Shown here: positions 52,705 to 62,149 of the stretch, piece after piece
Position numbering within the stretch: the stretch's first letter is position 1
Layout of the letters: every line of letters begins with the position of its first letter
Translations under genes and position numbers: made by a program
NCBI RefSeq assembly: GCF_020991275.1
Contig: NZ_JAJLQY010000004.1
Coordinates: 1 to 64,000, forward strand
Source of the DNA: Actinocorallia sp. API 0066
Lineage (GTDB): Bacteria; Actinomycetota; Actinomycetes; Streptosporangiales; Streptosporangiaceae
Direction: 5' to 3'
DNA: 64,000 nucleotides
The notes under the pieces: generated by a model
The model's database searches: none
What the model was told of the DNA's origin: nothing
Seen by the model: only the letters and a program-made list of their open reading frames with translations

Positions 52705-55269
52705 TCAGCCCGTTGTGGGGGCCGGGTCGAGGGCTGTGCCGTCCAGGCGGGTTGTCATTGTCTGGAGGGATTCGAGGGTGACGCCGTGGGCGCCGCGCAG
52801 GTCGGCGCCGGAGAGGTTGGTGTCGGTCAGGTCGGTGTTGCGCAGCCGGGCGCCGCGCAGGTCGGCGCCCTCCAGGTCGGCCCCGGCCAGGTTGACGCGG
52901 CGCAGGTCGGCGCCCGCCAGGGTGGCGCCGCGCAGGTCGGCGCCGGAGAGGTCGCCGCCGCGCACGCGGATCGCCGACAGGTCGAGGTGCTCTCCGGCGG
53001 CGCGCGGCTGCTCGGCGAGGACCCGCAGCGCGACGGCGACGTCGGGCGCCGGGGTGGCGGGCAGCGGCAGGTCCGGCGCCGGGTCGTGCTCGCGGACGAA
53101 CGCGGCGAGCACGCCACGGACGGCGGGCCGCTCACGCGGCGCGTCGGCCGCGACCCGCTCCAGCGCGTAGACCGCGCCCGTCCGGATCTCGGTCTTGGCC
53201 GAGCCGAGCTGCCGCACCGCCCGCGTGTACCGGTCGGCGGCCTGCGCCTCCTGGGCGACCCGGATGTTGTCGCGCGCGACGTCCACCTGGCCGTTGTCGC
53301 CGCGCACGGTGACGGCCCCGGCGACCAGGCCGACCACGGCGAGCGCGCCCACCACGAGCAGGGCGTTCCCGGTGATCCGCTCGCGCCGCCCGCCCGGCGT
53401 CAGGTGGCGCGGGCCCCGCGTCACCTTGGCCGCGACGTGCTTGGGCTCGGCGTGCCCGTCCCGGCCGCGCACCACGGGCATCCCGTCGGTCGTCTCGCCG
53501 ACCGTGAGCACCGCCTGGGGCCCGGTGGAGAGGAGCGCGTTCGGGCCGGTCGTGACCACCGCGAACCCCTCGGTGGGCGCCTCGGCGGAATCCCGGTGCG
53601 CTGACACGTCCGCCCGGACGGCCCCGGCCAGCACCGGCTCGGGTTCGGCATGCCCGCCGGTGAGGTCGGTGATCGTCGTCTCGGCGGGCCCTGCGACCAA
53701 GGGCTCCGCCGCCGCGTCGCCTTCGACGGGCTCGGCCGCGTGCAGGTCGAGGCTCTCGCGCAGCGCGGGCGGCTTGAGGAAGACGGCGGCGACGAGGCCG
53801 ACCACGGCGACGCCCAGCGAGACGAGGAAGATGTGCCCGGTCGCGTCACCGTAGGCGAAGCGGACGATCTCCTGGAGCGGGGCGGGCAGCGCGGCGATGT
53901 CGAGGTTGCCGCCCCGCGACCCGGACGGCGTGACGCCGATCTTCGCGAAGCCCTCCTTGATCAGGTCGGTGACGCGGGTGGCGAGGATCGCGCCCAGCAC
54001 CGAGACGCCGATCGTGCCGCCCAGGGAGCGGAAGAACGTCACGGCACCGCTGGCCGCGCCCATGTCCTGGAGGGACACGCTGTTCTGGACGACGAGGACG
54101 AGGTTCTGCAGGGACGCGCCGACGCCGATCCCGATCAGGGCCATGGCGAAGCCGATGTAGTACAGGCTCGTCTCGTGGTCGATCACCGACATGGCGGCGA
54201 ACCCGGCGATGAGGACGACGAGCCCGGCGATGATGTGCGGCCGGACGGTGCCGGTCCGGGAGATGATCCGGCCGGAGACCGTCGCGGCGACCAGCACGCC
54301 GAGCATCATCGGGATGGTGAGCAGGCCCGCCTCGGTCGGCGAGTAGCCGCGGCCGATCTGGAAGTACTGGCCGAGGAAGACCGAGCCGCCGAACATGGCC
54401 ATGCCGACGGCGAGGCTGGCGATGATCGCGAGCAGCGGGGTGCGCTGCCGCACGATGTGCACGGGCACCACGGGCTGCGGGTGGCGCAGTTCGACGACGG
54501 TCGCCAGGCCGAGCAGGGTGATGCTGCCGCCGACCATGGCGGCGGTCTCCCACGACCACCACGGGTAGCTGTCGCCCGCGAAGGTCACCCAGACCAGCAG
54601 CAGGCTGACGCCCGCCGCGATGAGGCCCGCTCCCCAGTAGTCGATCTTGACGTTCTCGGCCCGGACCGTCGCGACGTGCAGGAACCGGTGCAGGATCACC
54701 GACGCGATCAGCAGGAACGGCACCGCGATGAAGAAGCACCAGCGCCAGCCGAGCGGCGAGTCGGCGAGCACCCCGCCGAGCAGCGGGCCGCCGACCGTGG
54801 CGAACGCCATGACGCCGCCGAGGTAGCCGTTGTACTTGCCGCGCTCCTTCGGCGCGATCATCGCCGCGATGATCACCTGGACCAGGACCTGGAGCGCGCC
54901 CGCGCCGACGCCCTGGACCGCGCGGAACGCGATGAGCTGCCCGGTGTTCTGCGCGAACCCGCAGGCCAGGGACGCGATGACGAACATCACGATGCCCACC
55001 TGGAGCAGCATTTTCTGGTTGAAGAGGTCGGCGAGCCTGCCCCAGATGGGGGTGCTGGCCGTCATGGTCAGGAGCGTCGCGGTGACGACCCACGTGTACT
55101 GCGCCTGGGAGCCGCCGAGCGACCCCACGATCTGCGGCAGCGCCACCGACACGATGGTGCTGCTCATCAGGCCGATGCCCATGACCGTCAGCAGGCCGAC
55201 CAGGGATCGGTTGATCTCCTGCTGGCTCTTCGGTTCGGGAAGCACGGCCGCGGATGCCTTGTTTGTCAC
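52705..55269 (-). CDS. MFS drug exporter (DHA2) fused to a C-terminal pentapeptide-repeat domain
   Basis: An 854-residue, single-frame protein. Residues 1-500 are a 14-helix EmrB/QacA-type exporter (SVALPQIVGSLGGS; WVVTATLLTMTASTPIWGRLADLF; FRAVQGVGAGALQ). A 130-residue acidic linker follows, then one helix (about 634-655), a conserved AADRYTRAVRQLGSAKTEIRTGAVYALERVA block (676-706), and about eleven pentapeptide repeats (761-826, ADLRGATLAGADL pattern). Stand-alone pentapeptide proteins can shield DNA gyrase; membrane-anchored ones are of unknown role. GTG 55269 follows GGGGGA. Divergent from a TetR with a perfect operator between, as usual for exporters. Confidence 0.88.
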   Translation of the reverse strand: MTNKASAAVLPEPKSQQEINRSLVGLLTVMGIGLMSSTIVSVALPQIVGSLGGSQAQYTWVVTATLLTMTASTPIWGRLADLFNQKMLLQVGIVMFVIASLACGFAQNTGQLIAFRAVQGVGAGALQVLVQVIIAAMIAPKERGKYNGYLGGVMAFATVGGPLLGGVLADSPLGWRWCFFIAVPFLLIASVILHRFLHVATVRAENVKIDYWGAGLIAAGVSLLLVWVTFAGDSYPWWSWETAAMVGGSITLLGLATVVELRHPQPVVPVHIVRQRTPLLAIIASLAVGMAMFGGSVFLGQYFQIGRGYSPTEAGLLTIPMMLGVLVAATVSGRIISRTGTVRPHIIAGLVVLIAGFAAMSVIDHETSLYYIGFAMALIGIGVGASLQNLVLVVQNSVSLQDMGAASGAVTFFRSLGGTIGVSVLGAILATRVTDLIKEGFAKIGVTPSGSRGGNLDIAALPAPLQEIVRFAYGDATGHIFLVSLGVAVVGLVAAVFLKPPALRESLDLHAAEPVEGDAAAEPLVAGPAETTITDLTGGHAEPEPVLAGAVRADVSAHRDSAEAPTEGFAVVTTGPNALLSTGPQAVLTVGETTDGMPVVRGRDGHAEPKHVAAKVTRGPRHLTPGGRRERITGNALLVVGALAVVGLVAGAVTVRGDNGQVDVARDNIRVAQEAQAADRYTRAVRQLGSAKTEIRTGAVYALERVAADAPRERPAVRGVLAAFVREHDPAPDLPLPATPAPDVAVALRVLAEQPRAAGEHLDLSAIRVRGGDLSGADLRGATLAGADLRRVNLAGADLEGADLRGARLRNTDLTDTNLSGADLRGAHGVTLESLQTMTTRLDGTALDPAPTTG

Positions 55270-55335: not shown

Positions 55336-55374
55336 TGGGCATCCTTGGCCGCGCAGCCGCGTACGATGTGGGGC

Positions 55375-55959
55375 ATGAGCAGCACGCGGGGCCTGCGCGA
55401 GCGGAAGAAGGCCGAGACCCGGCTGGCCGTCCACCGCGCCGCCCTCCGCCTCGCCACCGAGCGCGGATTCGACGGGATCACCGTCGAGGAGATCGCCGAC
55501 GCCGCGCGGGTGTCCCGGCGCACGTTCTTCAACTACTTCGCCGACAAGGCGGAGGCCGTCGTGTTCGGCGAGGAGGACCTGTGGCGGCGGCTGATCGAGC
55601 TGATGGACGAGCAGCCCGCCGCGCTGTCCGGCTGGCGCGCGCTGCGCGCCGCCTCCGAGCTGCTGCTCGCCCCGCTGGCCGAGCCCGACCGCGAGTGGGT
55701 CGCCCGCTCCAAGCTGGCCAGGCGCCACCCGTGCCTGCTGGCCAGGCTCCTGGCCAACCAGGCGGTCCTGGAACGTGATCTCGCGCGCCGGATCCGCGAG
55801 CGCGACGGCGGATCCCGCGTGCACGCCCGCGTCCTGGCCGCCGGCTACCTGTCGGCGATCCGCGCGGCGGGCCATGTGTGGTTCGACACCGACGACGACA
55901 CCCCGCTGTTCACCCTCATCGAAGCCGCCCTGGACGAACTGGCGCTCCCCTACGAGTGA
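55375..55959 (+). CDS. TetR-family regulator of the MFS-pentapeptide exporter
   Basis: A 194-residue repressor. RGLRERKKAETRLAVHRAALRLATERGFDGITVEEIADAARVSRRTFFNYFADK is the classic TetR HTH with the RRTFFNYF recognition helix. ATG 55375 chosen at MSSTRGLRERKK; three codons upstream an ATG is also possible. The C-terminal domain should bind the exported compound. Convergent with the ammonia-lyase gene. Confidence 0.9.
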   Translation: MSSTRGLRERKKAETRLAVHRAALRLATERGFDGITVEEIADAARVSRRTFFNYFADKAEAVVFGEEDLWRRLIELMDEQPAALSGWRALRAASELLLAPLAEPDREWVARSKLARRHPCLLARLLANQAVLERDLARRIRERDGGSRVHARVLAAGYLSAIRAAGHVWFDTDDDTPLFTLIEAALDELALPYE

Positions 55960-56016: not shown

Positions 56017-57507
56017 TCAGATCAGGGCGCCGTCCAGCAGGTCGGCGGCGTCCCGGACGCGGACGGCCCACGGGCTGTCCGGGGCGAGCGCGGGCTCCAG
56101 CGCCTCCAGCAGGCGGGCGCCGTCGGCGGTGGTGGGCCGCCGGGCGCCGACCTTGACGGCCTGGACCAGCGCCACCGCGAGCGAGCCCTGGAGCAGCCGC
56201 AGCGTCCGCGCCTGCTCGTGCGCGGTGATCGCCGCCTGGGTGCCGAACGGGACGACGTCCTGGTTGTGGTGGTTGGTCGGCAGGCTCTGCATCGACGCGG
56301 GCATCGCGCGCCGCCGCATCCGCGCGACCAGCGACGTCGCCGCGAGCTGGACGCCCTGCACCCCGTGGTCGTGGCCCGGCACCTCGGCCAGCACCGGGTT
56401 GAGCCCGCCGTTGCGGTGCGGGTCGATGAGCAGGTCGAGCTGCCGTTCGGCGAGGTTGCCCATCTGCGTCGCGGTCACCGACATCAGGTCGGCCGCGAAC
56501 GCCACCTGCTGGCCGAAGAAGTTGCCGCCGTGCGCCACGACGTCGCGCTCGGGGAAGAACAGCGGGTTGTCGCTGACCCCGTTCAGGTCGTCGGTGACCA
56601 CCTGCCTGGCGTGCCGCAGGCTGCTCGCCGCCGCGCCCAGCAGGTGCGGGGCGCAGCGCAGCGAGTACGGCTCCTGGAGGGGGCGGTCGGCCCCCGGCCG
56701 GTGGTCGGCGAGCCGCTCGCGCAGGACGGCGGCCTGCCGCGCGGTGTCGTCGTGCCCGAGCGCCTCGTAGAGCTCGGGCACCACGAAGTCCGTGCGGCAG
56801 CCCAGGACGTCGGCCATCAGCGCGGTCAGCGCCGTCGCCGCGTTCAGGGAGCGGGTGAGGACGGTCAGCGCGAGGCCCGCCGCGGCGGCCGTCACCGAGG
56901 TGCCGTTGACCAGGGCGAGCGCGTCCCTGCCGTTGAGCGTCAGCGGGGCCAGGCCCGCCCCGGCCAGCGCCTCGTCGGCGGGCATCCGGACCGCGCCGAG
57001 ATAGGCGTGGCCCCGGCCCTGGAGCGCCCGGACGGCGTGCGCCATCGGGGCGAGGTCGCCGCTCGCGCCGACCGACCCGTACTCGGGGATCGCGGGCGCG
57101 AACGAGGTGGCGAGGGTGGCGCGCAGCGCGTCCACGACGGACAGCGCGACGCCCGATCTGCCGTGCGCGAGCGTCCACACCCGGGCCAGCAGCGCGGCGC
57201 GGGCCAGCGCGGGTGGCAGGTCGGGCCCCTGGCCGACCTCCAGATGGAACAGGAGGTTCTCGCACTGGTCGGCGGGCTGCCGCTGGCCCGCGAACCCGAC
57301 GAGCGGGCCGAACCCGGTGGTCGCGCCGTAGATCTCGCGGCCCTCGGCCAGGCACAGGTGCAGGTAGTCGTGGCACTGCGCGACCGACTTCTGTGCCGTC
57401 TCCTCCAGCGAGACGGCCAGCGGCCCGGCCGCCTGTTCGAGCGCCTCCGGGGTCAGGGTCGCGGGGAATACCAGTGTGGCCGTGGCGGGAAGCTGGTCTA
57501 CGGACAT
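56017..57507 (-). CDS. Aromatic amino acid ammonia-lyase, probably tyrosine-specific
   Basis: A 496-residue HAL/PAL/TAL-family enzyme. The Ala148-Ser149-Gly150 triad (GSVGASGDLAPM) forms the MIO electrophile; Tyr60 (EIYGATTGFG), NGT (LVNGTSVT), DNPLFFPE and QEPYSLRC are conserved. The selectivity dyad is His88-Leu89 (NLLFHLEVG), as in bacterial tyrosine ammonia-lyases, rather than Ser-His of HutH or Phe-Leu of PAL. It should release ammonia from tyrosine giving p-coumarate. An aminomutase cannot be excluded. It ends the minus-strand cluster, 29 bp behind the ketosynthase-like gene. Confidence 0.9.
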   Translation of the reverse strand: MSVDQLPATATLVFPATLTPEALEQAAGPLAVSLEETAQKSVAQCHDYLHLCLAEGREIYGATTGFGPLVGFAGQRQPADQCENLLFHLEVGQGPDLPPALARAALLARVWTLAHGRSGVALSVVDALRATLATSFAPAIPEYGSVGASGDLAPMAHAVRALQGRGHAYLGAVRMPADEALAGAGLAPLTLNGRDALALVNGTSVTAAAAGLALTVLTRSLNAATALTALMADVLGCRTDFVVPELYEALGHDDTARQAAVLRERLADHRPGADRPLQEPYSLRCAPHLLGAAASSLRHARQVVTDDLNGVSDNPLFFPERDVVAHGGNFFGQQVAFAADLMSVTATQMGNLAERQLDLLIDPHRNGGLNPVLAEVPGHDHGVQGVQLAATSLVARMRRRAMPASMQSLPTNHHNQDVVPFGTQAAITAHEQARTLRLLQGSLAVALVQAVKVGARRPTTADGARLLEALEPALAPDSPWAVRVRDAADLLDGALI

Positions 57508-57536
57508 GTCTCCTCCTGGTGGTTTGGGCGGCGGCC

Positions 57537-58112
57537 TCATCGGCCGGAGGCCGCCAGCAACTGGGCCTGTGCCGTGCCCGGGGAGCTCGGGTGGTCGCCG
57601 GGGTCCAGGGCGACGGCGAGGACTCGGTCGGCGTCCCCCGCCGCGATGAGGCGGGCCGCCCGCTCCCGGGCGGCGGCCAGCGGCCCGCCGACGGCCAGGA
57701 GGGTGACGAAGGGCCCGGTCAGCCCCCACAGCGCCGCGAGGTGACCGGGTGCCGTGCTCGGCACGTTCTGGAACAGCAGGTGCTTGGGCACCCGCTCGGC
57801 CGCCGCCGTCGCCGCGTCGATCGCCGCCTGGGTGACGGTGTCGCCGCGCGTCGCCGCGAGGACCAGGCCGACCCGGCGGCCGTCGGCCTCCGGCAGCGGC
57901 GGCGGCCCGAAGGCGGCGGTCAGGCACGGCTCGGCCGCCGCCATGAGCAGCGGCGCGAGGAACGAGACGTCCCAGCGCGGCACCTCCGGCAGGCGCGGCG
58001 CGGGATCGCCCTCCGGCGGCCACTGCGCCCGCGCGAGGACCGTGAGGGCGACGCGCCCGGGAGCCGTGGCTCCCGGGTGCGCGGTGGTGTGGGTGCGGAG
58101 ATCTGATTTCAT
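57537..58112 (-). CDS. Ketosynthase-like protein without visible active-site Cys
   Basis: A 191-residue protein resembling the N-terminal ketoacyl-synthase-like domain (Ketoacyl-synt_2). RVGLVLAATRGDTVTQAAID and LFQNVPSTAPGHLAALWGLTGP fit that fold, but no TACA-type Cys is present and the C-terminal half of a KS is missing. The ATG overlaps the full KS stop (ATGA), so the two are probably made as a pair, perhaps like a chain-length factor. Function inferred from context only. Confidence 0.75.
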   Translation of the reverse strand: MKSDLRTHTTAHPGATAPGRVALTVLARAQWPPEGDPAPRLPEVPRWDVSFLAPLLMAAAEPCLTAAFGPPPLPEADGRRVGLVLAATRGDTVTQAAIDAATAAAERVPKHLLFQNVPSTAPGHLAALWGLTGPFVTLLAVGGPLAAARERAARLIAAGDADRVLAVALDPGDHPSSPGTAQAQLLAASGR

Positions 58113-59170
58113 GGCGCCGCCAGGACGAGGGCGGTGCTGACACCGCCGAAACCGGTGTTGAGGCTGAGCATGTGCCCTGTCGCCGGGGCGGTCCCCGGTT
58201 CCAGGACGAGGTTCAGCGGGCAGTCCGCGTCGGGGCCGAGATAGCCCGCGTTCACGGGCACCTGCCCGTTGCGGAACGCCAGCGCGCACACGGCGAGCTC
58301 CACGAGCCCGGACGCCTCCAGGCAGTGGCCGTGCAGCGCCTTGGTGGAGCTGACGTGCGCGTCCGCGCCGTCGGGCGGCAGGCCGCGCAGGATCGCGGCG
58401 GCCTCGGCCGCGTCGAACGCGGGCGTCGCGGTGGCGTGCGCGTTGACGTACCCGATCCTCGGGTTGCCCGCCCTGGCCAGGGCCGCCTGGATGGCGGCGG
58501 CCGGTCCCCTGCCGTCGGGGCGCGGCCGGACCACGTGGTCGGCCTCGCAGGTGTTGCCCCAGCCCGTCACCCGCAGCCAGGACCCCGTGCCCCCGGCGGC
58601 GCGCGTGAGGACGGCGGCCGCCGCGCCGTCGCCCAGCACGGGCCCCTCCCGGCCCGCGCTGAACGGGCGGCTGACGCCCTCGGGCGTGAGGATGCCCGCG
58701 CTGTCGAACGCGGCGAACATGCTGGCGTCCACGAAGCTGGCGCCCGCCACCACCACCCGCTCCTCGGCGAGGTCGGCGACGAGTTCGGCGGCGTCGGCGA
58801 GCGCCGAGTTCGAGGCGGCGCACGCGGCGGTGTGCACCGCGAGGACCTCGCGCAGCCCGCAGGCGGCGGCGAGCGTCCGTGCCCGCGCGGCGGTGTCCCG
58901 TCCCGCGTGCAGCGCCAGCACCAGCGGGGTGCGGGCCCGCTGCTCCGGCGACAGCCCGGCCTCCTCGCACGCCTCGTCGATGAGGCCGCGCAGCGCCGCG
59001 AACGGGTCGGGGTCGCCGGGCAGGGTCGCCGCGTGGTGCGCGTGGCGGTGCGCGGTGTCGAACCGGGTGACCCGGCTCGTCGCCGGGGTCGCCGACTTCA
59101 GGCCGTCCCACAGCGCGGGCAGGCCGTGGCCGTAGGCGGTGAGCACCGCGAGCCCTGTGACGTCGGCCAT
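58109..59170 (-). CDS. Beta-ketoacyl synthase (FabF-like)
   Basis: A 353-residue condensing enzyme. Active-site Cys117 (HTAACAASNSA), His245 (VNAHATATP), Lys277 (SSTKALHGH) and His282, and the late NTGFGG loop are all present, so it should be catalytic. It is about 60 residues shorter than usual FabF proteins, mainly at the N-terminus. ATG overlaps the P450 stop by one base (TGATG). No ACP, KR or DH genes are visible in the window. Confidence 0.87.
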   Translation of the reverse strand: MADVTGLAVLTAYGHGLPALWDGLKSATPATSRVTRFDTAHRHAHHAATLPGDPDPFAALRGLIDEACEEAGLSPEQRARTPLVLALHAGRDTAARARTLAAACGLREVLAVHTAACAASNSALADAAELVADLAEERVVVAGASFVDASMFAAFDSAGILTPEGVSRPFSAGREGPVLGDGAAAAVLTRAAGGTGSWLRVTGWGNTCEADHVVRPRPDGRGPAAAIQAALARAGNPRIGYVNAHATATPAFDAAEAAAILRGLPPDGADAHVSSTKALHGHCLEASGLVELAVCALAFRNGQVPVNAGYLGPDADCPLNLVLEPGTAPATGHMLSLNTGFGGVSTALVLAAP

Positions 59171-60462
59171 CAGACCACCCCCGAGGCGGTGCGGGGCGTC
59201 CCGGCCAGGCCCGCCGACGGACGGAACGTGACGGGCGCCTCGGACAGGCCCGCCGTCACGTGGAACCGGGTGAACGGGCCCGTGCCGCCCGGACGCCAGC
59301 GCAGCTCCGCCAGCGGGACGGCCGGAGCCAGGTCGGGCAGGCCGCGCAGCACCGTCATCAGGGCGGTCCGGCACAGGTGCGCGCCGAGCGCCGGGGACAG
59401 GCAGTGGTGCGGGCCGTGCGAGAACGCGAGGTCGTGCACGACGACGCGGTCGGGATCGAGCCGGTTCGGCTCGGCGAACCGGTGCGGGTCGCGGTCGGCC
59501 AGGGCCAGGTGCACGACGATCGCCTCGCCCGGCCGCAGCTCCGCGCCGTGGAACTCCATCGGCCGGGTGACCAGGCGCGGCATCGGCGCGGCGACCGGGC
59601 TGGTGTAGCGGAGCAGCTCGTCCGTCGCCCCCTCGACCCGGTTGTGGTCGGCGGCCAGGGCCGGGCGCCACCACAGGCTGTACAGCGCCGTGGTGAGGAA
59701 GTCGGTGACGGGCTCGGTGACGGCCATGAGCATCGCGAAGACCGTGGAGGTCAGCTCCTGGTCGTCCATGCCGGTGGCATCGGCGTGCTCGATCATCGCG
59801 GTGACCGCGTCCGGGCCGGGGGTGCGGCGGCGCGCGGCGAGCAGGTCGTGGAGCAGCTCCACCATCTCCTCCCGCTCCACCCCGTACCGGACGCGTTCGG
59901 CCGACCCCGGCGGCTCGAACAGCGGCGACGGCGCCCACCTGGGCAGGGCGCGCAGCCGCTCGGTGATGTCGCGCGGGTACCCGAACAGGTCGGCGGCGAC
60001 GTCGAGGACGAACGGATGGCAGTAGTCGCGCACGAGGTCGGCCTCGCCGCGCCCGGCGACGGCGGCGAGCCGCCGGGCCGCGTGCCCGGCGGCGCGGTCG
60101 CCCGCGTACCGGGTGCGGTCGCCCGTCGCGGCGGCGCAGCCGAGCGCGCGCAGCCTGCGGTGCGCCTCGCCGTCGGTGTTGAACATGCTGCGCACGACGC
60201 TGTCGGTCGTCGGCTCGTCGGTGAACAGGAGGTACTCCTTCCACCTGGCGCCGCCCCGCTCGCTGAACGACCTGGCGAACGTCGGCTCGCCGAGCGCCTT
60301 GCGCGCCGCGTCGAAGCCCGTCACCGTCCAGACGAAGCTGCCGTCCGGGAGCGGCGCGCGCCAGACCGGCGGCTCGTCCCGGGTGTCGACGCCCTCGGCC
60401 TCCGGGCTGTGCCGCAGCCGCGCGTCCATGAGCGCGGTCGTGCCAGGTCCGGCTTCCACCAT
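59170..60462 (-). CDS. Atypical cytochrome P450
   Basis: A 430-residue P450. ExxR (ATDELLRYTSPVA) is normal and the heme loop keeps the Cys (FSHGPHHCLSPALG), but the usual Gly after CxG is Ser. The I-helix reads MLMAVTEPVTDFL instead of AGxDTT, so the proton-relay acid-Thr pair is altered. Such changes occur in biosynthetic P450s with unusual chemistry. ATG 60462 is backed by GGAGGGG; the annotated longer start adds nine Gly-rich residues. First gene of the minus-strand cluster, divergent from the CoA ligase. Confidence 0.87.
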   Translation of the reverse strand: MVEAGPGTTALMDARLRHSPEAEGVDTRDEPPVWRAPLPDGSFVWTVTGFDAARKALGEPTFARSFSERGGARWKEYLLFTDEPTTDSVVRSMFNTDGEAHRRLRALGCAAATGDRTRYAGDRAAGHAARRLAAVAGRGEADLVRDYCHPFVLDVAADLFGYPRDITERLRALPRWAPSPLFEPPGSAERVRYGVEREEMVELLHDLLAARRRTPGPDAVTAMIEHADATGMDDQELTSTVFAMLMAVTEPVTDFLTTALYSLWWRPALAADHNRVEGATDELLRYTSPVAAPMPRLVTRPMEFHGAELRPGEAIVVHLALADRDPHRFAEPNRLDPDRVVVHDLAFSHGPHHCLSPALGAHLCRTALMTVLRGLPDLAPAVPLAELRWRPGGTGPFTRFHVTAGLSEAPVTFRPSAGLAGTPRTASGVV

Positions 60463-60506
60463 GCAGCCACCCCTCCCACCCACAATCACACCAAGTAACT
60501 ATGATG

Positions 60507-60522
60507 TTGCCATCCGTAGCAA
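60507..60522. promoter_or_regulatory. TTGC-N8-GCAA dyad in the P450/ligase gap
   Basis: Short inverted repeat (60507-60510, 60519-60522) in the 115-bp divergent gap, within an AT-richer stretch (AAGTAACTATGATG). It could be a shared operator of the cluster. Weak evidence. Confidence 0.3.
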
Positions 60523-60577
60523 TTGCCGGGATGCGACTTTCCAAACGCCCATCTCCGACACCTCTCCAGGAGCGGAC

Positions 60578-62149
60578 ATGCCCGACCATCTCCTCAACCC
60601 CTCCACCACGCCGTCCCCCGCGTCGGACGCGGACACGAGCGCCGCGCCCGACGCGGCGCCCTCGGACGCGGGCCACGCCATGCCGTTCGGCGCGCTCGCC
60701 GCGGGGGGCGTCGGCGGGTGGCTGCGGCGCCGGGCCGAGCGCGGCGGCGCGCGGGTCGCGGTCCTGGTCCCCGACGGCGGCGCGGTGACGTACGCCGCGC
60801 TGTTCGACCGGGCGACCCGGATGGCCCGACTCCTGGAACGGGACGGAGTGGGCAAAGGGGACCGAGTCGCCTATCTAGGGCCGAACGAGCCGGGGTTCCT
60901 CGTCGCGCTGGGCGCCGCCGGGCTGCTCGGCGCCGTGTTCGTCCCGCTGAACACGCTGCTGTCCGGCCGGGAGATCGCGCACCAGGTCGCGGACTGCGGC
61001 GCGCGGGTGCTGCTGCACTCGGCGTCGGTCCCGCCGCCGCCGGTGGCGCTGCCGGTCCGGGAGGTCGGCGGGCCGGACGGGGAACGCGAACTCGCGCGGG
61101 CCTCGGCCGAACCCGTCACCACCGCCGTCGCGGCGGACGACCCGTGCCTCATCCTCTACACCTCCGGGACGACCGGGCAGCCCAAGGGCGCCGTCCTCAC
61201 CCACGGGAACGTGCTCGCCAACTGCCTCAACGCCTGGGCCGACCTCGACCTCACCGGCACCGAGACGGCGCTCGTCACCGCCCCGATGTTCCACGCCGCC
61301 GCGCTCGGCATGCTCGCGCTGCCCGTCCTGCTGAAGGGCGGGACGTGCCTGCTCACGCCGTCCTTCGACGCGGGCCGCGCCCTCGACCTCATCGGCGCGC
61401 GGCGCGTCACCTCGCTGTTCGCGGTGCCGACGATGCTGGAGCGGATGGCCGAGCACCCGGCCTGGGCCGACGCCGACCTCACGAGCCTGCGCACCCTGCT
61501 GTGTGGCGGCGCGCCCGTGCCGGAGAAACTCCTCGCGCGGTACGCCGAGCGGGGCGTCGCCGTCCGCGAGGGGTACGGGCTGACCGAGGCCGCGCCGGGC
61601 GTCCTGGTGGACGGCGGCACCGGCGCCGGGCTCGTCCCGCACCTGTACACCGACGTGCGGCTGGCCCCGCTGCCGGGCGCGCCCCCCGAGACGGGCGAGC
61701 TGCTCGTGCGGGGCCCGCAGGTGATGGCCGGGTACTGGGGCCGCCCCGCCGACACCGAGGCCGCCTTCACGGACGGCTGGCTCCGCACCGGCGACATCGC
61801 CCGCCGCCTCCCGGACGGCTCCTACCGGATCGTGGACCGCCTCAAGGAGGTCATCATCTCCGGCGGCGAGAACATCTACCCGGCCGAGGTGGAACGGGCC
61901 CTGCTCGCCGTGCCGGGGGTCGCCGAGTGCGCCGTCATCGGGGTGCCCGACGCGCGGTGGGGCGAAGTCGGGCGGGCCGTGCTCGTCGCCGCGCCCGGCG
62001 CCGCCCTCGACCCCGAGGCCGTCCTCGCCGCGCTGCGCGGCCGCCTGGCCACCTTCAAGATCCCGCGCTCGGCCGTCGTCGTCACCGACCTGCCGCACAC
62101 CCGCACCGGCAAGGTCCACCGCCGCGCCGTCAAGGACCGGCACGGCTGA
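60578..62149 (+). CDS. Acyl-CoA ligase (4-coumarate-CoA ligase-like)
   Basis: A 523-residue ANL-superfamily enzyme. Core motifs: ILYTSGTTGQPKGAVLTHGN (A3), GYGLTEAAPG (A5), RTGDIARRLPDGSY (A7), EVIISGGENIYPAEVE (A8) and the catalytic Lys in TRTGKVHRR (A10). A 35-residue Ala/Pro/Ser-rich leader precedes the fold. ATG 60578 follows CCAGGAGCG. Next to the ammonia-lyase it would activate p-coumarate or cinnamate with ATP and CoA. Confidence 0.9.
   Translation: MPDHLLNPSTTPSPASDADTSAAPDAAPSDAGHAMPFGALAAGGVGGWLRRRAERGGARVAVLVPDGGAVTYAALFDRATRMARLLERDGVGKGDRVAYLGPNEPGFLVALGAAGLLGAVFVPLNTLLSGREIAHQVADCGARVLLHSASVPPPPVALPVREVGGPDGERELARASAEPVTTAVAADDPCLILYTSGTTGQPKGAVLTHGNVLANCLNAWADLDLTGTETALVTAPMFHAAALGMLALPVLLKGGTCLLTPSFDAGRALDLIGARRVTSLFAVPTMLERMAEHPAWADADLTSLRTLLCGGAPVPEKLLARYAERGVAVREGYGLTEAAPGVLVDGGTGAGLVPHLYTDVRLAPLPGAPPETGELLVRGPQVMAGYWGRPADTEAAFTDGWLRTGDIARRLPDGSYRIVDRLKEVIISGGENIYPAEVERALLAVPGVAECAVIGVPDARWGEVGRAVLVAAPGAALDPEAVLAALRGRLATFKIPRSAVVVTDLPHTRTGKVHRRAVKDRHG

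What the first reader, a model, noticed from the sequence alone, without database searches (positions are those of the whole stretch)
56017..62149. Minimal p-coumaroyl cluster: TAL-type lyase, CoA ligase, KS, Cys-less KS partner and odd P450
The lyase has the His-Leu dyad for tyrosine, the ligase is 4CL-like, and one active FabF-type KS overlaps a half-length KS-like gene. No ACP, KR, DH or AT is present. This suggests a short aryl chain extension with borrowed fatty acid parts, or a direct CoA-based condensation, a setup I cannot match to a known pathway.
Basis: partly seen in the sequence, partly recalled or inferred. Interest (0 to 1): 0.8.

Follow-up and report, generated by a model that had tools for sequence, protein, structure and literature searches.

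The report
Five-gene p-coumaroyl ketosynthase cassette
A compact set of five bacterial genes, kept together in several actinomycetes, appears to turn the amino acid tyrosine into activated p-coumaric acid and then lengthen it with an unusual two-part condensing enzyme that has no carrier-protein gene of its own nearby; the end product is not known.

Summary
The five genes are real and were read almost correctly. P450, ketosynthase (KS), half-length KS-like partner and lyase form one tightly packed operon with a divergent CoA ligase. I found the operon in 9 distinct actinomycete loci (window plus 8) in at least four kinds of neighbourhood; the ligase is adjacent in 8 of 9. An ACP profile finds no carrier protein in any of the 9 loci but a strong one in 10 of 14 other KS/half-KS loci (8 of those 10 supplied training sequences). 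The KS keeps Cys-His-His; the partner has one thiolase half with Gly at the Cys site. The lyase is closest to a tyrosine-type lyase and has the His-Leu dyad in 9 of 9. The ligase is closest to a feruloyl-CoA synthetase. The P450 has Pro for the I-helix Thr in 9 of 9. Most likely p-coumaroyl-CoA primes the KS, malonyl comes from fatty acid ACP (or CoA), one or a few condensations follow, and the P450 finishes. Product unproven. New variant of a known kind.

The parts
60578..62149 (+). Hydroxycinnamate-type CoA ligase (ANL family), divergent from the operon
   Evidence: PF00501+PF13193; nearest solved structures 8wev (named feruloyl-CoA synthetase) and its near-twin 8weu (named fatty-acyl-CoA synthase), 481 bits with the window protein alone, next 296, 621-622 against 361 with the 4-row profile; adjacent and divergent in 8 of 9 loci
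59170..60462 (-). Cytochrome P450, first gene of the operon, I-helix Thr replaced by Pro
   Evidence: PF00067; heme Cys354 and ExxR kept, E-P in the I-helix in 9 of 9 loci; at the same place 5 control P450s have Thr (3) or Asn (2)
58109..59170 (-). Ketosynthase (KS) with Cys117/His245/His280, 353 aa
   Evidence: PF00109+PF02801; triad 9 of 9; own clade 100/100 inside the KS/half-KS group
57537..58112 (-). Half-length Cys-less KS-like partner (CYF/ApeC-like), 191 aa
   Evidence: PF00109 only; profile of 8 half-KS proteins matches FabF 4ddo residues 101-241 with Gly at the Cys site; modest model, best fold matches 7f28_A/C, then FabF and others; overlaps the KS gene by 4 bases
56017..57507 (-). 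Tyrosine ammonia-lyase-type MIO lyase, 496 aa
   Evidence: PF00221; best PDB relative 2o6y; His88-Leu89 and Asn415-Gln416 in 9 of 9
55366..55959 (+). TetR-family regulator, counterpart only beside the same-genus locus L031 (66%)
   Evidence: probably local control, not part of the core
52705..55245 (-). MFS exporter with a C-terminal pentapeptide-repeat region, counterpart beside L031 (70%); L032 and L033/L043 have another MFS gene (28-30%)
   Evidence: PF07690 + PF00805; possible export, not part of the core

Best explanation
A self-contained five-gene biosynthetic cassette. Step 1 (inferred from homology): the lyase removes ammonia from L-tyrosine to give p-coumaric acid. Step 2 (inferred from homology): the ligase makes p-coumaroyl-CoA. 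Step 3 (inferred): KS and its half-length partner form a heterodimer; p-coumaroyl is loaded on Cys117 from CoA and condensed with malonyl, most likely carried by the ordinary fatty acid ACP, possibly by CoA. With no KR or DH in the cassette the product keeps its keto group(s): a beta-keto diketide such as 5-(4-hydroxyphenyl)-3-oxopent-4-enoyl thioester, or a short poly-keto chain that cyclises. Step 4 (inferred): the P450, whose gene overlaps the KS gene and which lacks the usual I-helix Thr, oxidises this phenolic product, perhaps by a reaction other than plain hydroxylation. Shown here: the genes, their packing, their conservation, intact motifs, and no ACP gene nearby. Not shown: any enzyme activity, the heterodimer, the number of condensations, the carrier, the product.
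For: Order and orientation kept in 9 of 9 distinct loci with at least four kinds of flank; ligase next to it in 8 of 9, and a 57% relative on another contig in the ninth genome. Triad, MIO motif, HL dyad and P450 E-P in 9 of 9. dN/dS below 1 in every pair computed. Ligase nearest feruloyl-CoA synthetase by a wide margin. No ACP in 9 of 9, strong hit in 10 of 14 other KS/half-KS loci. Half-length partner: full-length profile match to the half-KS of other loci, 99.9%. Precedent for a KS with a short partner doing one C2 elongation: AmcF-AmcG (PMC10698177 passages).
Against: No activity data. That the KS pair acts on p-coumaroyl rests on gene neighbourhood only. The KS scores 125 bits on the AmcF model (cut-off 325), below the 219-250 bits that many ordinary KSs score, one of this genome's own (223 bits) included, so the cispentacin mechanism cannot be carried over by orthology. 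The partner is not directly recognisable as AmcG (hhalign 4-26%), and it matches the N-terminal half of full-length second KSs better (82%). In the AmcG-containing clusters of Hibi et al. the ACP is almost always present (section 9). Four of 14 other KS/half-KS loci also gave no strong ACP hit, so absence nearby need not mean that no ACP is used. The KS model failed (pLDDT 44), so nothing can be said on pocket or ACP surface.
Confidence: 0.5

Rival explanations
1. The KS pair does not elongate but acts as an acyltransferase: it takes p-coumaroyl from CoA and passes it to another acceptor made elsewhere, and the P450 tailors the acyl group.
For: No ACP in 9 of 9 loci, and no KR, DH, AT or thioesterase gene in the unit itself. 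KS-fold acyltransferases are known (recalled, no call).
Against: Both active-site His residues as well as Cys are intact in 9 of 9; apart from the five genes no gene is shared by all four kinds of neighbourhood.
Confidence: 0.17
2. It is a functional stand-in for a type III polyketide synthase: three condensations on p-coumaroyl give a tetraketide that cyclises to a chalcone, stilbene or styrylpyrone, and the P450 acts as in the Streptomyces clavuligerus naringenin pathway.
For: Similar inputs (lyase, p-coumaroyl-CoA, P450 beside the condensing enzyme) as tal/ncs/ncyP in S. clavuligerus, where deletion of the P450 gene nearly abolishes naringenin (PMC4640377 passages).
Against: AmcF-AmcG does one elongation only; no evidence on cavity size (KS model unusable); the condensing enzyme is not a type III PKS.
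Confidence: 0.15
3. Lyase and ligase serve a different pathway or p-coumarate turnover, and the KS pair uses another starter; they only share a locus.
For: In Streptomyces ruber the ligase is not beside the operon; feruloyl-CoA synthetases also act in catabolism (recalled).
Against: The lyase is in the same operon as the KS pair in 9 of 9 loci and the ligase adjoins in 8 of 9.
Confidence: 0.1
4. The lyase is a histidine ammonia-lyase or an aminomutase and the cassette is not about p-coumarate.
For: The NCBIfam model with the highest score is a HutH subfamily model, though below its cut-off (334 of 524 bits); tyrosine aminomutase models and structures match too, more weakly.
Against: HL dyad and Asn-Gln in 9 of 9 (meaning of these residues recalled); best solved relative is 2o6y; the genome has another, much stronger match to the family (600 against 416 bits), whose own residues were not compared.
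Confidence: 0.05

Closest known systems
Cispentacin KS-CYF pair AmcF-AmcG (Hibi et al. 2023, PMC10698177)
   Same: KS with Cys next to a short KS-like partner, plus an adenylate-forming ligase
   Different: AmcF/G use an ACP (AmcB) and a 2-oxoglutaryl-ACP ligase (AmcH); here no ACP in 9 of 9 loci, a feruloyl-CoA-synthetase-like ligase, a lyase and a P450; KS clade separate from the two AmcF rows, partner linked to AmcG only through intermediates
Aryl polyene KS-CLF ApeO-ApeC (PMC8358021; PDB 7f28, 6qsp)
   Same: Half-size, one-thiolase-fold partner of an active KS, aryl starter; 7f28_A is the best Foldseek match of the partner model by E-value, though with TM 0.48 and rmsd 8.5, no better than FabF in TM
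   Different: Aryl polyene clusters have two ACPs, KR, DH and a second KS; PF13723 (recalled as the ApeC-type family) finds nothing in this genome
Naringenin pathway of Streptomyces clavuligerus (tal, ncs, ncyP; PMC4640377)
   Same: Ammonia-lyase, p-coumaroyl-CoA, P450 next to the condensing enzyme
   Different: Condensing enzyme is a type III PKS there and a type II KS/half-KS pair here; tal is 47 kb away there
Highly reducing type II PKS ava/cma clusters (PMC10777205)
   Same: KS plus partner with an aryl starter and an acyl ligase
   Different: Two ACPs, reductase and chain length factor; p-coumarate is the product there and the presumed starter here
Feruloyl-CoA synthetase (PDB 8wev, 8weu)
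   Same: Closest solved relative of the ligase, nearly full length
   Different: Substrate of the present ligase untested

Membership tests
AmcF-AmcG type KS-CYF | Active KS (Cys-His-His) encoded beside a short KS-like partner without Cys at the active site | tested here: met
AmcF-AmcG type KS-CYF | Partner homologous to AmcG rather than just to KS in general | tested here: inconclusive
   Direct hhalign 4% and 26%, 13.8%; this partner to the half-KS of other loci 99.9%, those to AmcG 95%; but this partner to second-KS N-halves 82% and the other half-KS to them 87%
AmcF-AmcG type KS-CYF | KS belongs with AmcF | tested here: not met
   125 bits, cut-off 325; the two AmcF-like loci L045/L046 score 523/491, other KSs up to 249; tree separates the clades 100/99, with long-branch warnings
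AmcF-AmcG type KS-CYF | Dedicated ACP (AmcB) in the cluster | tested here: not met
   0 of 9 loci
AmcF-AmcG type KS-CYF | AmcH-type ligase for 2-oxoglutarate | tested here: not met
   Ligase nearest feruloyl-CoA synthetase, about 30% to the AmcH-like L075 protein over part of its length; activity untested
Aryl polyene ApeO-ApeC | Partner in the ApeC family PF13723 | tested here: not met
   0 matches in the genome; that PF13723 is the ApeC family is recalled
Aryl polyene ApeO-ApeC | Half-length one-thiolase-fold partner | tested here: met
   Pfam first domain only; model of modest quality (pLDDT 66.9, pTM 0.68) with 7f28_A first by E-value, 6qsp_B at rank 36
Highly reducing type II PKS | ACP, KR and DH in the cluster | tested here: not met
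   ACP 0 of 9; no KR or DH gene in the five-gene unit
Tyrosine ammonia-lyase | MIO motif and His-Leu selectivity dyad | tested here: met
   9 of 9, aligned with 2o6y; meaning of the dyad is recalled
Tyrosine ammonia-lyase | Turns tyrosine into p-coumarate | not testable with these tools
   needs an assay
Hydroxycinnamoyl-CoA ligase | Closest relatives are hydroxycinnamate CoA ligases | tested here: met
   among solved structures only; substrate not assayed
Type III PKS (chalcone synthase) pathway | Chalcone-synthase-type enzyme in the cluster | tested here: not met
   gene content of the module; the rest of the genome was not searched

The most novel reading that the evidence does not exclude
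A carrier-free type II-like condensing pair: KS and half-KS condense p-coumaroyl-CoA directly with malonyl-CoA, so that a type II KS/half-KS does the job which plants and some bacteria give to type III chalcone or benzalacetone synthases, and its coupled P450 with a Thr-less I-helix completes a hitherto unseen small aryl ketide.
Probability: 0.2. Interest if true: 0.85.

Novelty: new variant of a known kind. Interest (0 to 1): 0.57.

Why it matters
KS/half-KS pairs are a young branch of type II polyketide synthases; for the 'cyclization factor' kind the paper search showed only the cispentacin study. A five-gene version without an ACP gene, kept in order across at least three genera, is about the smallest such system one could test, and it would show whether type II condensing enzymes can work from CoA or by borrowing the fatty acid ACP. 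The wider group met here (neighbours that look like aminobenzoate, UbiD or hydroxyphenylpyruvate-type genes) suggests that aryl-primed KS/half-KS systems are an unexplored class.

Tried and rejected
Rejected: (1) 'The KS is an AmcF' from its NCBIfam hit: a scan of 394 genomes of the class showed many other KSs scoring 219-250 bits on that model, more than this KS (125); the same scan rang in E. coli and B. subtilis, where it can only be a housekeeping KS (inferred). (2) ApeC membership via PF13723: nothing in the genome. (3) Histidine lyase: see rivals. (4) Presence on plasmids: no match to the KS in PLSDB at 1e-50. (5) Finding the product by literature: the listings show no paper with this gene set; open-access PMC only, titles and abstract starts seen. 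(6) KS structure: model unusable (pLDDT 44), so not searched. (7) VIA-align second look: library not available. (8) Meaning of the missing I-helix Thr: one search gave a listing only, nothing read.

Limits of controls: the ACP profile was built from 9 ACPs, 8 of them from control loci; of the 10 control loci with a strong hit only L096 and L098 were outside the training set. With one member left out, L034, L038, L075, L095 and L101 were recovered (5 of 5 testable); L077 was not among the scanned loci, so its empty row means nothing. L037, L076, L099 and L100 gave no strong hit, so a missing ACP is not unique to this cassette. The two 'FabF-like' rows of the tree (L047, L053) were cut from frames of about 755 residues and are probably halves of double-KS proteins, not housekeeping FabF; five of the seven such rows asked for did not pass the motif filter. 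The row called noCYF_L038 there is misnamed: one search places a half-KS match directly after that KS.

Rows dropped: L033, L093 and L094 were not counted and not given, because I took them for the same contigs as L043, L044 and L041 (equal contig lengths). In one search the HutH-like paralog L103 was not extracted, so its dyad was not compared. In one search the ligase of L040 was left out and 3 ligase pairs were computed against 5 pairs for each other gene.
Full report
What is there. P450 and KS share one base, KS and half-KS four, and the half-KS/lyase gap is 29 bases, so the four minus-strand genes are almost certainly one operon. Family assignments are clear. Neighbours are a TetR regulator and an MFS exporter with a pentapeptide-repeat tail on one side, and a gene without a Pfam match and a LuxR-type regulator on the other.

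Is it a unit? The half-KS was sought in 297 genomes of the order; 4 of 297, the window's genome included, have a match below 1e-50 and hold the operon. A scan of genome contigs with the KS alignment gave 53 stretches, 5 confirmed, all five with P450-KS-half-KS-lyase: Streptomyces monomycini, Streptomyces sp. CB02923, S. ruber, Streptomonospora mangrovi and S. rimosus. In 392 genomes of the genus of G583 (Streptomyces, judged by contigs shared with named records) 3 have the module KS (about 600 bits), two of them contigs already seen, and 7 a more distant KS of 282-360 bits. After removing repeats of the same contig there are 9 distinct loci: window, L031, L032, L040, L041, L042, L043, L044, L092. 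The ligase is adjacent and divergent in 8 of 9; in S. ruber the best relative (57%) lies on another contig. Flanking genes fall into four groups (window and L031; L032 and L043; L040, L041, L044 and L092; L042), so the five genes, not the region, are what is kept. dN/dS is 0.17-0.67 over 23 gene pairs; the highest, 0.67, is the half-KS of two very close loci.

The lyase. Among solved structures it scores highest against 2o6y (250 bits; histidine lyase 225, tyrosine aminomutase 206). The table names 2o6y a putative histidine ammonia-lyase; that it is the Rhodobacter tyrosine lyase, and its neighbour 2o78 with Phe-Leu a changed form of it, is recalled. His88-Leu89 aligns with its His-Leu pair. 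HL, the ASG motif and Asn-Gln 415-416 are the same in 9 of 9. The genome has two other family members: a 600-bit one, presumably the housekeeping HutH, and one with a Phe-Leu dyad, 58% identical, inside a type I PKS-like locus. A histidine lyase is therefore unlikely.

The ligase. Its nearest solved structures are 8wev, named feruloyl-CoA synthetase, and its near-twin 8weu (621-622 bits with the profile against 361 for the next; 481 against 296 with the single sequence). This points to hydroxycinnamate and to CoA as acceptor.

The KS pair. The KS has Cys117, His245, His280 in 9 of 9. The partner has only the first KS domain; a profile of 8 half-KS proteins aligns with FabF residues 101-241 with Gly where FabF has Cys, and this Gly is the same in 9 of 9 (S. 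ruber has a Cys two residues earlier). Its model is of modest quality; by E-value the best match is 7f28_A, a 203-residue chain of the ApeO-ApeC structure, but with TM 0.48 and rmsd 8.5, and FabF structures are as good by TM. [quoted passage not shown] The cispentacin paper shows a KS with a short partner (AmcG, 'cyclization factor') that does one C2 elongation and a ring closure on an ACP (PMC10698177: abstract, passages, sections 9 and 10). By profile the partner here matches the half-KS of other actinomycete loci at 99.9% and these match AmcG at 95%, but the direct match to AmcG is weak, 4-26%, and weaker than that to the N-terminal halves of full-length second KSs, 82%. The KS forms a 100/100 clade within a group of 21 KSs, all with a half-KS match beside them (L038), split from two AmcF, two other KSs and four second KSs by a 100/99 branch; the program warns of long branches. 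Its full-length hit to the AmcF model is not evidence of orthology, because many other KSs, one of this genome's own included, score higher.

No carrier. A profile of 9 ACPs finds no ACP-like frame (E<10) in any of the 9 module loci, including all 64 kb of the window, and finds one strongly in 10 of 14 other KS/half-KS loci, of which 8 supplied training sequences and 2 did not; with single members left out 5 of 5 were recovered. Hibi et al. state that almost all of their clusters contain an ACP homolog (section 9). The present cassette therefore must borrow an ACP, or work from CoA. Four of the 14 other loci also lack a strong ACP hit, so the trait may be wider.

The P450. Heme Cys and ExxR are normal, but the I-helix has E-P in 9 of 9, Pro where Thr is usual; 5 control P450s from the same loci have Thr (3) or Asn (2) there. 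Its two best solved relatives carry only general names (7wex, 3wvs); then come macrolide P450s such as PikC and EryF. What the change means for the reaction is open.

Interpretation. Tyrosine to p-coumarate to p-coumaroyl-CoA is likely (about 0.85). That KS and half-KS form a heterodimer is likely (about 0.9, from precedent). That this pair extends p-coumaroyl with malonate is the best reading (about 0.6), and the whole scheme as stated about 0.5. The ring closure by aldol seen for 2-oxoglutaryl in cispentacin cannot be copied directly, since a p-coumaroyl diketide has no ketone at the matching carbon (inference); so either the product stays open (benzalacetone type), or more C2 units are added, or the P450 brings about the closure.

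Verdict. Observation confirmed; interpretation partly supported; a new, conserved variant of a known kind (KS with half-length partner) without an ACP gene nearby, product unknown.

Noticed in passing
L034:1214-12507, L035, L036: Uncharacterised KS/half-KS clusters with an ACP and a small ACP-like gene, a second KS, a glyoxalase/hydroxyphenylpyruvate-dioxygenase-like protein, a PhyH dioxygenase and TPP-enzyme E1 subunits (Pfam on L034 only).
   Followed up: partly
L095, L096, L097, L098 (about 3-15 kb): KS/half-KS clusters beside a large protein whose start resembles aminodeoxychorismate synthase (judged by eye), with AMP ligases, ACP and a second KS: suggests an aminobenzoate starter.
   Followed up: no
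L099:5729-10124 and L100:6001-9885: KS/half-KS pair beside UbiD- and, in L099, UbiX-like genes (judged by eye), also without an ACP hit.
   Followed up: no
L106:8478-10112 (G000:C12): A second biosynthetic-type lyase, 58% identical to the module lyase but with a Phe-Leu dyad, beside large KS-bearing (type I PKS-like) genes of the same genome.
   Followed up: partly
window 52705-55245: MFS drug-exporter-like protein with a pentapeptide-repeat tail.
   Followed up: no
L031:10962-12263: Class III aminotransferase gene between the lyase and the TetR gene in the same-genus locus only.
   Followed up: no
L038:8524-10640: KS with ACP and small ACP-like gene; its half-KS (G173:C52:53523-53978) was missed by my gene caller, which put other genes there.
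   Followed up: no
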